From Saccharothrix violaceirubra (GTDB lineage Bacteria > Actinomycetota > Actinomycetes > Mycobacteriales > Pseudonocardiaceae), in assembly GCF_014203755.1 (NCBI RefSeq), contig NZ_JACHJS010000001.1:1426001-1490000 (forward strand): a stretch of DNA of 64,000 bases, written 5' to 3'. Below the pieces are notes generated by a model, which was not told where the DNA came from, did no database searches, and saw only the letters and a list, made by a program, of their open reading frames with translations. Positions 2,055 through 51,959 of this stretch are shown piece after piece. The position numbers and the translations under genes are program-made. Numbering within the stretch: the stretch's first letter is position 1; each line of letters opens with the position of its first letter.

Positions 2055-2405
2055 GGACCGGCGGTCCGTTAGCGGTCATGGGCAGTCGATTGGACGAGTT
2101 GTGTGCCCACGCGACGCGGATTGAGCGGGTCAATGGTCCGGGCTTCGATGTCGGGCGATTGTCGGGTGTGGGTGTGACGTGGTCGCGTCGTGTGCCACTC
2201 CGGAGGCCGTGTCGGGTCGGTGGTCGACGTCTGGTCGCAGGTGCGAGGTGGGTACCACTCTGCGTCCGGGGATGCGTGAAAGCTCGTGTCTGGTGAACCG
2301 GACTGCCGGTCCGGTCGGGGGCGGTGGGGCCTTCGTGGTTTCAGTGATGGACATCCGGTGGGTCGGAGCCGTATGACCGAGAGAAATGGACTACTGGTCC
2401 GCTTT
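2055..2405. repeat. three copies of a dispersed GGACY-N3-GGTCC motif in the ftsW-murG gap
   Basis: The 722-base gap between ftsW and murG holds no convincing gene. It contains three short imperfect palindromes of one design: GGACC-GGC-GGTCC-GTT at 2055-2070, GGACT-GCC-GGTCC-GGT at 2300-2315 and GGACT-ACT-GGTCC-GCTTT at 2388-2405. The same motif occurs in other gaps of this window (near 41.6, 42.7, 47.2 and 51.9 kb). Nothing else definable is visible in the gap, although a promoter for murG could lie here. Confidence 0.5.
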
Positions 2406-41638: not shown

Positions 41639-41655
41639 GGACCGTCGGTCCGGTT
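41639..41655. repeat. dispersed motif GGACC-GTC-GGTCC-GGTT
   Basis: One copy of the GGACY-N3-GGTCC-GGTT motif lies in the nadB-nadC gap, 151 bases before the nadC start. The 5-bp arms are exact. Confidence 0.5.
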
Positions 41656-42713: not shown

Positions 42714-42730
42714 GGACCGCCGGTCCGGTT
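42714..42730. repeat. dispersed motif GGACC-GCC-GGTCC-GGTT
   Basis: A further copy of the dispersed palindrome lies in the gap between nadC and the convergent PRC-barrel gene. In this gap nothing else is evident. Confidence 0.5.
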
Positions 42731-45580: not shown

Positions 45581-46747
45581 ATGTTCGACCTGGCTTCCGT
45601 GCGCGCCGACACGCCCGGCGCGGCGCGCGTCTTCCTCGACTCGGCGGGCTCGTCGCTGCCGCCGTCGTCCGTGCTGGACGAGGTGATCGGGCACCTGCGG
45701 CGTGAGGCCGAGGTCGGCGGGTACGTCGCCGCGCAGGAGCGTGCGGCCGATCTCGACGCCGGGTACGAGGTGTTCGCCCGGCTCCTCGGCGCCGAACGGG
45801 ACGAGATCGCGTTCACCGACAGTGCCACGCGGTCGTGGCTTTCGGTGTTCGACGCGGTGCCGCTCGCGGTAGGCGATCGCGTTCTCGTGACGGAGGCGGA
45901 GTACGCGGGCAACGCGGTGCCGATCTTGGCACGCGCGGCCGAGACCGGCGCGGTGGTCGACGTCATCCCGTCCGACGTGCACGGCCAGGTGGACGTCGAC
46001 GCAGTACGCGCGCTGCTCGACGAACGGGTCAAGCTCGTGTCGCTGGTGCATGTGCCGACCAACGGCGGACTGGTCAACCCGGTGCGTCCGGTGGCCGACG
46101 CCGCGCACGAGGTCGGGGCGCTGGTGCTGCTCGACGCGTGCCAGTCGGTCGGACAGTTGCCCGTGCACGTGGGCGAACTCGGTGTCGACCTGCTGACCGG
46201 TACGGGCCGCAAGTGGTTGCGCGGCCCGCGCGGGACCGGGTTCCTGGTCGTGCGCCGCGACGCGCGCGAGCGACTGCGTCCCCGGTTGGTCGACCTGCAC
46301 GGCGGCGAGTGGACCGGTGAACGCGAGTTCCGGTTCCGTGACGACGCGCGTGTGCTGGAACTGTGGGAGTGCTCCGTCGCCGATCGGCTCGGGTTGATCA
46401 CGGCCGCCCGGTACGCGCTCGACCTGGGGCTCGACACGATCACCGCCGAGGTCGCCGACCGCGCGGACCGGTTGCGTGCGGGACTGCGCGAGGTGCCCGG
46501 TGTGGAAGTGCACGATCTCGGCGCACGTCACGCGGGTCTGGTGACGTTCACGAAACAGGGCACGGATCCGGGCGAAGTACGTGAACACCTCGCCGCACAT
46601 GGGGTCACGGTCACGACCAGCGGTCTGAGTTCGACACGCCTGGACATGACACGCCGCGGCTTGACGACGGTGGTGCGTGCGTCGCCGCATTACTTCGTCG
46701 ACCCCGCGCAACTGGACGAGGCGGTGGCGGCGGTCGGGACCGCGTGA
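45581..46747 (+). CDS. class V aminotransferase, cysteine desulfurase-like
   Basis: The 388-residue PLP enzyme shows VFLDSAGSSLPPSSVLDEV, ATRSWLSVFDAVPL, VTEAEYAGNAV, VLLDACQSVGQLPVHV and the PLP lysine K211 in GTGRKWLRGPRGTGFLVV. These fit the branch of class V enzymes that includes isopenicillin-N epimerase-like proteins and EgtE, the ergothioneine C-S lyase. No egt genes are nearby, so the reaction is open. It lies 21 bases after the lipoprotein gene in the same direction, and GGGGGA precedes its ATG. Confidence 0.82.
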   Translation: MFDLASVRADTPGAARVFLDSAGSSLPPSSVLDEVIGHLRREAEVGGYVAAQERAADLDAGYEVFARLLGAERDEIAFTDSATRSWLSVFDAVPLAVGDRVLVTEAEYAGNAVPILARAAETGAVVDVIPSDVHGQVDVDAVRALLDERVKLVSLVHVPTNGGLVNPVRPVADAAHEVGALVLLDACQSVGQLPVHVGELGVDLLTGTGRKWLRGPRGTGFLVVRRDARERLRPRLVDLHGGEWTGEREFRFRDDARVLELWECSVADRLGLITAARYALDLGLDTITAEVADRADRLRAGLREVPGVEVHDLGARHAGLVTFTKQGTDPGEVREHLAAHGVTVTTSGLSSTRLDMTRRGLTTVVRASPHYFVDPAQLDEAVAAVGTA

Positions 46748-46763: not shown

Positions 46764-47095
46764 TCGTGTACACGGGCCGTGCGCCGAACGCGATCATGCG
46801 TCGGCGCCGTGTGCGCGATGCGGTCGTGTACCAGTGCTGTGTGCGCAATGCGGTCATGCGCGACTCGGCGTACGCGACGCGAGTCGTGTACCGACGTTGT
46901 GCGCGTGATGCGAATGGTGCACGGGGTGGTGTGCCGAACGCGGTCGCGCACCAGACGTTGCACGCAAACGCGGAAGTAGCAGCGGATGGGGCACGCGGAC
47001 GCTTCGTGTATTGGTGCCGGTACGCCGATGGGACTTCGTACCGGTGCTGGTACGCGATGCGGGTTCGTACCGGTGCTGTGCGCGGAGCGGGAGTG
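46764..47095. repeat. large array of the 30-bp-period repeat
   Basis: About eleven units follow each other at a nearly exact 30-base period (starts at about 46764, 46794, 46824, 46854, 46884, 46914, 46944, then after a slightly irregular unit 47003, 47035 and 47064). A typical unit reads TCGTGTACCAGTGCTGTGTG then CGCAATGCGG. Units differ at many positions, but the spacing of TCGTGTA and GCGATGCGG elements is kept. A frame reading ten-residue repeats exists (ending -DAV/-NAV) but lacks a ribosome binding site. The array lies between converging genes. Confidence 0.65.
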
Positions 47096-47141: not shown

Positions 47142-47228
47142 CGACCATCGGTCCGGTTCGACCGTTGGTCCGCTTTGACCATGGGTCCGCTTTGACTGTC
47201 GGTCCGGTTCGACCGCGGGTCCGTTTCG
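47142..47228. repeat. five tandem copies of the GACC-N3-GGTCC motif
   Basis: Five units of about 17 bases stand head to tail: GACC-ATC-GGTCC-GGTT, GACC-GTT-GGTCC-GCTTT, GACC-ATG-GGTCC-GCTTT, GACT-GTC-GGTCC-GGTT and GACC-GCG-GGTCC-GTTT. It is the same motif found singly in other gaps. It lies between the 30-bp array and the terminator of the carboxypeptidase gene. Confidence 0.6.
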
Positions 47229-47246
47229 TTCCCGACTGCGGCGGTA

Positions 47247-47276
47247 CCGGGCCGTCCCCTGTGCGGGACGGCCCGG
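47247..47276 (-). terminator. terminator hairpin after the M14 carboxypeptidase gene
   Basis: CCGGGCCGTCCC and GGGACGGCCCGG form a perfect 12-bp stem with loop CTGTGC, ending 12 bases beyond the minus-strand stop. Confidence 0.7.
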
Positions 47277-47288
47277 CGTCCTCACCGG

Positions 47289-48590
47289 TCAGCAGGTGCG
47301 GTTGATGATCCGCGGCACGCAGTCGGAGTACTGGAGGAACAGTTCGACCGCCGTGTCGTTGCGTGTCGTCTGCGGTCCGATCTGGGTGTCACGCGGGTAG
47401 AACCCGGACGTCCCGCTCGACGTCTTCGGGTACATCTCGAAGGTGTAGCTCCAGATCTTGTGCTGGAACCACATCCAGTCGTTGACCGACCCGTCCGTGA
47501 TGTACAGGTCGCTGGACTGCTGCGGCGTGTACCCGTTGCGCGACGCCATCTGCCGACCCAACGTCGAGAACGCGCTCTGCTGCGTGGCGTCCAACCCCGG
47601 AGCCGTGTCGTTGTACGTGTACCCGTACGGCCACAGGATCAGCTCCGAGTACGTGTGCCAGTCGATGTGCGTCTTGATCTGCTGCACACCGCCGACCACA
47701 CGCGAGTTCACGAAGTCACGCACGCGCTGCGTCTCCGGCGCCGAGAACGCCGACGGCCCGCGATAGGTCTCCGACGACGTGCTCCCGCTCGAACCGCCGC
47801 AGCACCCCCACTGGTAACCCCAGTTCCGGTTGGGGTCGGTGCCAGGGCCCTGGCGGTTCTTGCGCCACGCCCGGAAGGACCCGGACGCGATGTCGTACTC
47901 CTTGCCGTCCGGGTTCACGATCGGCAGGACCCAGATCTCGCGGCTGTCGACCAGGTTCTTGATCGTGGCGTTGGACGCGTAGTTGTCCGTGTACCGCTTG
48001 ATGATGTGCAAGCACATCTCCACAGTCAGGTGCTCACGCGCGTGCTGGTTGCACGTGAACAGCACCTCGGGCTTCGCCTGGTCGGTCGCCGGGCTGTTGC
48101 TGATCTTCAACGCCCAGATGTCGCGGCCCTCGTGCGACTTGCCGATGCTCTGGAGCTTCACCAGGTCGGCGTGGTCGCGCACGGTCTGGTTCAGCTCGGC
48201 GACGGTCTCGGCGTAGTTGTGGTAAGCGGTGTACCCGGACGGGAAGTCGAGCTTGCCGACCTGCGGGTCGGCAAAGTCGACCTTGCCCAGCGCGGCGAGC
48301 TGGGACTCGGCGCTGCCGACGGCGCGCACCGGGAGCCCGGTGGCGGCGAGCGCGAACCGCTGACCGCGCTCGGCGATCACGGTGAGCTTGTCGCCGACGA
48401 GGCCGAGCACGTCGACGCCGGTCTTGGCCACGCGCGAGCGCGCTTCGGGTGTCGCGGCGGTGATCTCGAACACGGTCCGGTCGTCGCGCTGTGCGGTCGG
48501 CTGCTGTGCCGAACCGCTGTGCACGGGGACGACCAGGGCCAGGCACACACCGACGGCTGCGGCGACGAGGCCGCGGCGCTTGGTGAGCAT
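47289..48590 (-). CDS. secreted M14 zinc carboxypeptidase
   Basis: The 433-residue precursor has a signal peptide (residues 1 to about 28, TKRRGLVAAAVGVCLALVVP) and a propeptide-like region (about 30-125). A peptidase M14 domain follows. Zinc ligands are visible in HAREHLTVEM (His and Glu) and KTHIDWHTYSE (His), the catalytic glutamate in YTFEMYP, and the substrate arginine/tyrosine region in WPYGYTYNDTAPG. It resembles the S. griseus carboxypeptidase T/SG branch. It probably trims C-terminal residues outside the cell. GGAGG precedes its ATG. It is divergent from hisD. Confidence 0.92.
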   Translation of the reverse strand: MLTKRRGLVAAAVGVCLALVVPVHSGSAQQPTAQRDDRTVFEITAATPEARSRVAKTGVDVLGLVGDKLTVIAERGQRFALAATGLPVRAVGSAESQLAALGKVDFADPQVGKLDFPSGYTAYHNYAETVAELNQTVRDHADLVKLQSIGKSHEGRDIWALKISNSPATDQAKPEVLFTCNQHAREHLTVEMCLHIIKRYTDNYASNATIKNLVDSREIWVLPIVNPDGKEYDIASGSFRAWRKNRQGPGTDPNRNWGYQWGCCGGSSGSTSSETYRGPSAFSAPETQRVRDFVNSRVVGGVQQIKTHIDWHTYSELILWPYGYTYNDTAPGLDATQQSAFSTLGRQMASRNGYTPQQSSDLYITDGSVNDWMWFQHKIWSYTFEMYPKTSSGTSGFYPRDTQIGPQTTRNDTAVELFLQYSDCVPRIINRTC

Positions 48591-51942: not shown

Positions 51943-51959
51943 GGACCTGCGGTCCGGTT
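51943..51959. repeat. dispersed motif GGACC-TGC-GGTCC-GGTT
   Basis: One copy of the dispersed palindrome lies 23 bases before the ATG of the frameshifted TetR gene. Here it would be well placed as an operator, but its occurrence in unrelated gaps argues for a more general role. Confidence 0.5.

What the first reader, a model, noticed from the sequence alone, without database searches (positions are those of the whole stretch)
46764..47095. Large intergenic array with a fixed 30-base period but drifting sequence
About eleven units follow each other. The first seven keep a 30-base period almost to the base while individual units have diverged strongly. Each unit carries a TCGTGTA-like start and a GCGATGCGG-like end. 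Conserved spacing with eroded sequence suggests selection on helical phasing (30 bp is about three DNA turns) or on a repeated protein-binding platform. It lies between converging genes, where a chromosome-organising or boundary role would be possible. A ten-residue-repeat peptide can be read, but nothing else supports coding.
Basis: seen in the sequence. Interest (0 to 1): 0.75.

Follow-up and report, generated by a model that had tools for sequence, protein, structure and literature searches.

The report
Decayed tandem repeat between converging genes
A stretch of old, worn 30-letter repeats fills a gap that opened in this bacterium between two genes that overlap in most of its relatives; it is probably spacer DNA, but it lies in a part of the chromosome strewn with an unexplained mirror-image DNA signal.

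Summary
In detail: 46764-47095 has a 30-bp period (z 9.6; 0 of 1000 shuffles reach it at any period 5-60). It is non-coding and derived: in 15 of 24 same-genus loci the converging neighbours overlap by 17-20 bp, in 5 they are 54-119 bp apart. A unit profile finds no dispersed family, though only 150 of 20,334 candidates were scored. Helical phasing is not supported: 30 bp is 2.86 turns. Two results resist plain decay: 3-4 of nine units carry internal +/-1 shifts that return to the 30-bp register, and in a gapped alignment some columns are kept more than even decay gives (P 0.01-0.02; not seen ungapped). Best reading: a decayed minisatellite-like spacer array. Outside the given coordinates, the same gap holds a 17-bp array of a degenerate dyad, AAGC-GGACC-NNN-GGTCC-GCTT. 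Of 44 whole-genome sites of its core, 27 lie in 340 kb (1.218-1.558 Mb), arms conserved and centre variable. Its 16-base form is commoner here than in any of 199 other genomes searched. That is the novel lead.

The parts
46764..47095 (+). degenerate tandem array, 11 units of 29-31 bp, consensus TCGTGTACCGGNGCNGTGTGCGCGACGCGN; non-coding
47142..47228 (+). 17-bp array of five degenerate GACC-NNN-GGTCC dyads (each one or two mismatches off GGACC-NNN-GGTCC, read by eye) followed by G(C/G/T)TT
   Evidence: sequence
47229..47288 (-). strong hairpin just downstream of the carboxypeptidase gene (-40.6 kcal/mol as RNA), terminator-like without a T run
45581..46747 (+). aminotransferase class V gene, left neighbour
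   Evidence: PF00266 E 3e-56
47289..48590 (-). zinc carboxypeptidase (peptidase M14) gene, right neighbour, converging
   Evidence: PF00246 E 5e-69
2055..2067 (.). exact GGACC-NNN-GGTCC dyad, intergenic
41639..41651 (.). exact GGACC-NNN-GGTCC dyad, intergenic
42714..42726 (.). exact GGACC-NNN-GGTCC dyad, intergenic, between converging genes
51943..51955 (.). exact GGACC-NNN-GGTCC dyad, intergenic

Best explanation
The array is an old, decayed tandem (minisatellite-like) expansion in spacer DNA. In the ancestor the two converging genes probably overlapped at their 3' ends. In this lineage the overlap was lost, a gap opened, and local duplication (replication slippage or unequal exchange) filled it with roughly 30-bp units made of 13+17-bp sub-repeats, next to an independent 17-bp array. 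The units then diverged by point mutation and small indels. It probably has no sequence-specific role of its own beyond separating two converging transcription units. Shown: period, non-coding character, lineage specificity among the genomes compared, no dispersed unit family found. Inferred: the slippage mechanism and the lack of function. Not explained: the return to register after internal shifts, and the mild unevenness of column decay.
For: Converging genes overlap by 17-20 bp in 15 of 24 same-genus loci, and in two Umezawaea loci, so the 541-bp gap is derived. At the same junction L025 (119-bp gap) holds an 18-bp tandem repeat (lag 18 match 0.60) and L019 (100-bp gap) a roughly 15-bp one by eye, so this spacer gains arrays repeatedly with unrelated units. 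Periodic gaps are about as common in four relatives: z>6.5 in 21 of 237 tested gaps here, and 5/67, 7/67, 6/62, 5/57 there (some with periods that are multiples of 3 may be missed genes). In the 7 clean units, ungapped, column conservation is as expected for even decay (P(variance >= observed) 0.55-0.83). Unit profile: 8 of 14 whole-genome matches at E<=1 are the array itself, the best other is E 0.1 (150 of 20,334 candidates scored).
Against: Units 46854, 46914 and 46974 exceed the 99% level for an internal shifted segment and 46944 has P 0.024; each is back on the lattice at the next unit. If these are indel pairs, the number of indels is about what the ratio in non-coding Actinosynnema DNA predicts (35 indels to 325 substitutions in one 20-kb stretch, 31 of the 35 in two gaps), but they cancel. 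The lattice was part of how the array was chosen, so I give no formal odds. When the 11 units are aligned with gaps, 4 columns are invariant and column variance exceeds even-decay simulations of matched identity (P 0.01-0.02; invariant columns P 0.04-0.13; one search used simulations that were too diverged). The + strand folds better than shuffles (z -3.8), which plain decay does not predict.
Confidence: 0.52

Rival explanations
1. A lattice of binding sites for a DNA-binding protein: each unit is a weak site and the 30-bp distance is selected for cooperative binding.
For: Register kept despite internal +/-1 shifts; uneven column conservation in the gapped alignment (P 0.01-0.02); arrays of period 30, 31 or 33 in 6 of 125 tested gaps at 1.03-1.63 Mb (this array is one of the six) and 1 of 325 elsewhere (that one looks coding by eye), Fisher P 0.002; conserved dyads in the same segment.
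Against: Ungapped columns decay evenly; unit not dyad-symmetric (P 0.62); no orthologous array seen in relatives; 30 bp is not a whole number of turns; the region was chosen after the arrays were seen, and 40 kb more of it (1.26-1.30 Mb, 12 gaps) held no such array.
Confidence: 0.25
2. An RNA structure in the 3' untranslated region of the aminotransferase transcript: the + strand folds into long G-U-rich hairpins that stop read-through or protect the end.
For: + strand -182.6 kcal/mol, z -3.8, 0 of 100 shuffles fold as well. A 22-bp array of a relative (L125) shows a similar G-U-dependent excess (z -3.2), and some other arrays fold well on both strands (L072 z -7 to -8, L093, L089).
Against: The effect vanishes without G-U pairs (z -0.2) and on the other strand (z -0.3); the first seven units alone give z -1.5; several other arrays show nothing (L070 z 0.4, L047 z 1.3 and 0.5, L094 z 0.1); no Rfam match at gathering score.
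Confidence: 0.1
3. A short repeat protein with ten-residue repeats.
For: One + frame is open for 179 codons.
Against: Best of six frames scores -0.09 per codon; genes average 0.43 and their 1st percentile is 0.09; no Pfam domain; other long frames are open here on both strands; the class includes 17-, 20-, 22- and 31-bp periods that keep no frame.
Confidence: 0.02

Closest known systems
bacterial minisatellites / VNTR-type intergenic tandem repeats (recalled)
   Same: head-to-tail units of tens of bp in a spacer, lineage-specific, substitution-decayed
   Different: units far more diverged than a typing VNTR (mean pairwise identity 0.47 ungapped), so Tandem Repeats Finder sees only the tail; register kept through internal shifts
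REP / BIME / REPIN palindromic repeats (PMC3116915, PMC3733652, PMC2817692: search listing and abstract starts only)
   Same: intergenic, repeated; the dyads nearby are palindromic
   Different: this array's unit is not dyad-symmetric; the dyads nearby have a variable centre and are clustered in one segment; the only Y1 transposase match of the genome (3.92 Mb) has no exact dyad in its 3.4-kb locus
matS sites of MatP (PMC3330122, abstract start in search listing: 13-bp target repeated 23 times in 800 kb)
   Same: for the nearby dyads only: short palindromic site, 27 of 44 copies in 340 kb
   Different: segment lies about 1.48-1.82 Mb from dnaA if the contig is circular, neither origin nor opposite it; no such cluster by eye in the relatives G001-G007 whose site lists one search printed (at most 5 within about 275 kb); no binding protein known

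Membership tests
minisatellite-like intergenic tandem array | head-to-tail units with a fixed period above chance | tested here: met
   z 9.6
minisatellite-like intergenic tandem array | non-coding spacer, length variable between relatives | tested here: met
minisatellite-like intergenic tandem array | unit number varies between strains of the species | not testable with these tools
   one genome per species is held
REP/BIME | palindromic unit | tested here: not met
   dyad P 0.62
REP/BIME | many dispersed copies | tested here: not met
   (150 of 20,334 first-look candidates scored)
matS-like domain site (nearby dyads, not this array) | conserved palindrome clustered in one chromosome segment | tested here: met
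   borders drawn after seeing the data
matS-like domain site (nearby dyads, not this array) | lies in the terminus region | tested here: not met
   dnaA at 7.091 Mb; circularity assumed
matS-like domain site (nearby dyads, not this array) | bound by a MatP-type protein | not tested
   no search for MatP was made; no binding data
Rfam RNA element | match at gathering score | tested here: not met
   the one sub-threshold match, RF03134, has 27.4 of 47.4 bits

The most novel reading that the evidence does not exclude
The gap belongs to a chromosome domain of about 250-350 kb that is marked by a sequence-specific 21-bp dyad (AAGC-GGACC-NNN-GGTCC-GCTT), single and in arrays with 17-, 30- and 33-bp spacing. 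A dimeric protein reads it to fold or handle that segment: a domain-marking system outside the terminus, in an actinomycete. The 30-bp array would then be a decayed or auxiliary part of the same platform.
Probability: 0.15. Interest if true: 0.85.

Novelty: new member of a known kind. Interest (0 to 1): 0.42.

Why it matters
For the array: it shows that, in this genus, a junction between converging genes can go from a 20-bp gene overlap to 541 bp of tandem repeats, and that a period can outlive the sequence. For the dyads: a palindrome with conserved arms and a variable centre, 27 of 44 copies within 4.6% of the chromosome, is what a domain-specific binding site would look like; a single pull-down would test it. 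Domain-marking sites are known mainly from the terminus and origin (recalled).

Tried and rejected
Helical phasing: rejected on arithmetic and on the range of periods in other arrays. Dispersed unit family: profile, position-weight chains (best other hit 26.0 in L034, against a maximum of 23.0 in 20 column-permuted matrices) and local alignments (L196 z 4.0, L034 z 2.2, but one of 140 control gaps reached 6.6) leave a link to the 30/31-bp arrays L034 and L196 suggestive only. A post-hoc core shared with L196, GCGGTCGYGTACC, failed the whole-genome test: 11 own hits, 6 at 1.217-1.473 Mb but all already seen, 5 elsewhere; 24 relatives have 1-11 each.

Segment-wide exclusion of the 22-bp array family: its exact core has 76 hits and none between 1.032 and 1.662 Mb, but a looser form occurs at 1.175 Mb (z 9.3) and the array count is not significant (0 of 125 against 8 of 325, P 0.11), so I do not claim it.

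Introgression of the segment: GC3 is lower inside (0.904 against 0.931) and the difference exceeds that of relatives' orthologues (0.043 here, 0.018 there; 26 and 35 pairs), but protein identity to relatives is not lower inside (medians 79, 78, 88 against 59, 69, 82 for G007, G011, G021, small numbers); undecided. A first register analysis over-fitted (17 shifts) and a second stuck at one shift; one search is the one I rely on. The 22-bp matrix drifted (108 of 189 hits lie outside gaps). and one search also show that folding and register results differ among arrays; the one shift of L196 (gain 49) is a real change of register, not a cancelled one.

Literature: searches listed no report that I recognised of these arrays or dyads; no paper was opened. 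Minisatellites and known domain sites other than matS are recalled.

Full report
OBSERVATION. The array at 46764-47095 is real. Folded at period 30 its mean column identity is 0.394, z 9.6 over dinucleotide shuffles, and 0 of 1000 shuffles reach it at any period 5-60. Unit starts lie within 1 bp of 46764 + 30n up to 47004, then at about 47034 and 47063. Extra autocorrelation at lags 17, 43 and 47 shows that the unit itself is built of 13+17-bp sub-repeats. Tandem Repeats Finder reports only the better-preserved tail and, separately, a 17-bp array at 47142-47228.

SETTING. The neighbours are an aminotransferase class V gene (45581-46747, +) and a peptidase M14 gene (47289-48590, -), both clear by Pfam. 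The window is 1,426,001-1,490,000 of a single 7,354,386-bp contig. The closest named relatives of the carboxypeptidase are Saccharothrix, Umezawaea and Actinosynnema. In 15 of 24 same-genus loci the two genes overlap by 17-20 bp; in 5 they are 54-119 bp apart; in one 577 bp, where the spacer reads like an extra gene (my reading); 3 could not be measured. Two Umezawaea loci also show the overlap, so it is probably ancestral and the 541-bp gap is derived. The short gap of L025 holds an 18-bp tandem repeat and that of L019 a roughly 15-bp one by eye, so arrays have arisen at this junction more than once.

CODING. All six frames of the array score below zero per codon (best -0.09); genes average 0.43 and their first percentile is 0.09. 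No Pfam domain in the 179-codon frame, no Rfam family at gathering score.

IS THE UNIT A FAMILY? A sequence profile of 11 units was run over the whole genome: 14 matches at E<=1, 8 of them the array, 6 elsewhere from E 0.1 (the tool scored 150 of 20,334 first-look candidates). Of the three that I could place, one lies in another intergenic array (L196) and two lie in genes. Weaker signals to the arrays L034 and L196 did not survive a whole-genome test of a shared core.

THE CLASS. Degenerate tandem arrays are common in gaps of this genome and its relatives. With z>6.5: 21 of 237 tested gaps here, 5 of 67, 7 of 67, 6 of 62 and 5 of 57 in four relatives. In 1.66 Mb of this genome (450 tested gaps), periods with z>6 are 10-21 (21 gaps, several likely missed genes), 22 (8), 30-33 (7) and 36-48 (3). 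A 22-bp family recurs: its core CTCGCGGTGTCCGA has 76 exact hits in the genome and 0-12 in each of 24 relatives. Its commonest 13-mer is in 13 of 501 gaps and in no predicted gene of an 864-kb sample. By a looser matrix it is in 11 of 81 convergent, 16 of 320 tandem and 5 of 100 divergent gaps.

DECAY OR CONSTRAINT. The evidence is divided. Ungapped, the seven clean units have no invariant column and a column variance that even decay gives (P 0.55-0.83). But some units are internally displaced, which blurs such columns. In the gapped alignment of 11 units 4 columns are invariant, and column variance exceeds even-decay simulations of matched identity at P 0.01-0.02, the count of invariant columns at P 0.04-0.13 (one search used simulations that were too diverged). 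Pairwise identity does not fall with distance between units (0.43 to 0.57 for separations 1-6), so the copies look like one burst. A leave-one-out test finds internal +/-1 displaced segments in units 46854, 46914, 46944 and 46974 (P 0 of 2700 null units, 0.007, 0.024, 0.0004), each back in register at the next unit. A repeat puts three of them over the 99% level; four of five other arrays tested show one or two units over that level. Non-coding DNA of two Actinosynnema genomes has 35 indels for 325 substitutions, 31 of them in two gaps. At that rate several indels are expected here, and several seem to be here; the odd thing is that they cancel.

HELIX AND RNA. 30 bp is 2.86 turns at 10.5 bp per turn (recalled constant), so units face round the helix, not one side. 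The + strand folds better than shuffles (z -3.8) only thanks to G-U pairs; the other strand does not (z -0.3). Other arrays are mixed: the dyad array L072 folds strongly on both strands (z -7 to -8), L089 and L093 moderately, L125 with the same G-U dependence, while L070, L047 and L094 show nothing.

WHAT LIES AROUND IT. All exact dyads of two 5-base arms spaced 0-12 were counted in gaps of the 1.66-Mb sample. In the segment 1.21-1.565 Mb, CGGAC-5-GTCCG (25 copies in 15 gaps, 1 copy outside) and GGACC-3-GGTCC (23 in 12 gaps, 1 outside), which are largely the same sites, stand alone; the next has 7. Against the outside density the excess is 22.7 sites with no mismatch, 17.3 with one and none with two or more. 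The three central bases vary (though biased, for example no A at the third) and the outer flanks vary more: arms conserved, centre loose. The extended form is the 21-bp palindrome AAGC-GGACC-NNN-GGTCC-GCTT. It occurs singly and in arrays of spacing 17 (this gap, each copy one or two mismatches off), 30 (L066) and 33 (L072). In the sample 23 of 28 exact sites at 1.03-1.63 Mb are in gaps, against 1 of 3 elsewhere. Whole-genome: 44 distinct sites of GGACCNNNGGTCCG, 27 between 1.2178 and 1.5582 Mb (binomial P 3e-25, with borders drawn after seeing the data). The density is uneven: three sites in one array at 1.218 Mb, none to 1.312 Mb, the other 24 in 246 kb; two further stretches at 1.26-1.30 Mb hold none in gaps. 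In 200 genomes of the family the 16-base form has 21 hits here, 12 in the next and 0-9 in the rest, and its backward control 0 here. dnaA is at 7.091 Mb and parS-like sites at 7.085-7.096 Mb, so, if the contig is circular, the segment is about 1.48-1.82 Mb from the origin on one replichore. Genes there have lower GC3 (0.904, n 212, against 0.931, n 942, P 2e-25).

CONCLUSION. The array is best read as a decayed minisatellite-like expansion in a newly opened spacer, a known kind of thing (0.52, lowered from 0.6; the binding lattice raised from 0.2 to 0.25). The bolder idea, a domain-marking dyad system to which this gap belongs through its 17-bp array, is not excluded (0.15) and is the part worth an experiment.

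Noticed in passing
genome 1.2178-1.5582 Mb, in the window at 2055, 41639, 42714, 51943 and 47142-47228: Intergenic 21-bp dyad AAGC-GGACC-NNN-GGTCC-GCTT, strongly clustered in one segment, arms conserved and centre variable.
   Followed up: yes
whole genome, e.g. L047:13945-14100, L035:7711-7866, L046:18280-18450: Dispersed 22-bp intergenic array family (core CTCGCGGTGTCCGA), 76 exact core hits here against 0-12 in each of 24 relatives; in 11 of 81 convergent gaps of the sample.
   Followed up: partly
genome 1.21-1.565 Mb: Genes have lower GC3 than the rest of the sampled genome (0.904 against 0.931), only partly mirrored in relatives' orthologues.
   Followed up: partly
L196:17560-18460 (genome about 1.2176-1.2185 Mb): A 31-bp intergenic array of about 900 bp in which three GGACC-NNN-GGTCC dyads lie 122-123 bp (four units) apart, a higher-order repeat.
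   Followed up: partly
L141, L142, L143, L144 downstream of the M14 gene: Kibdelosporangium, Rhodococcus-labelled and Saccharomonospora loci seem to show other degenerate tandem arrays (about 20-22 bp) after the same gene; seen by eye output.
   Followed up: no
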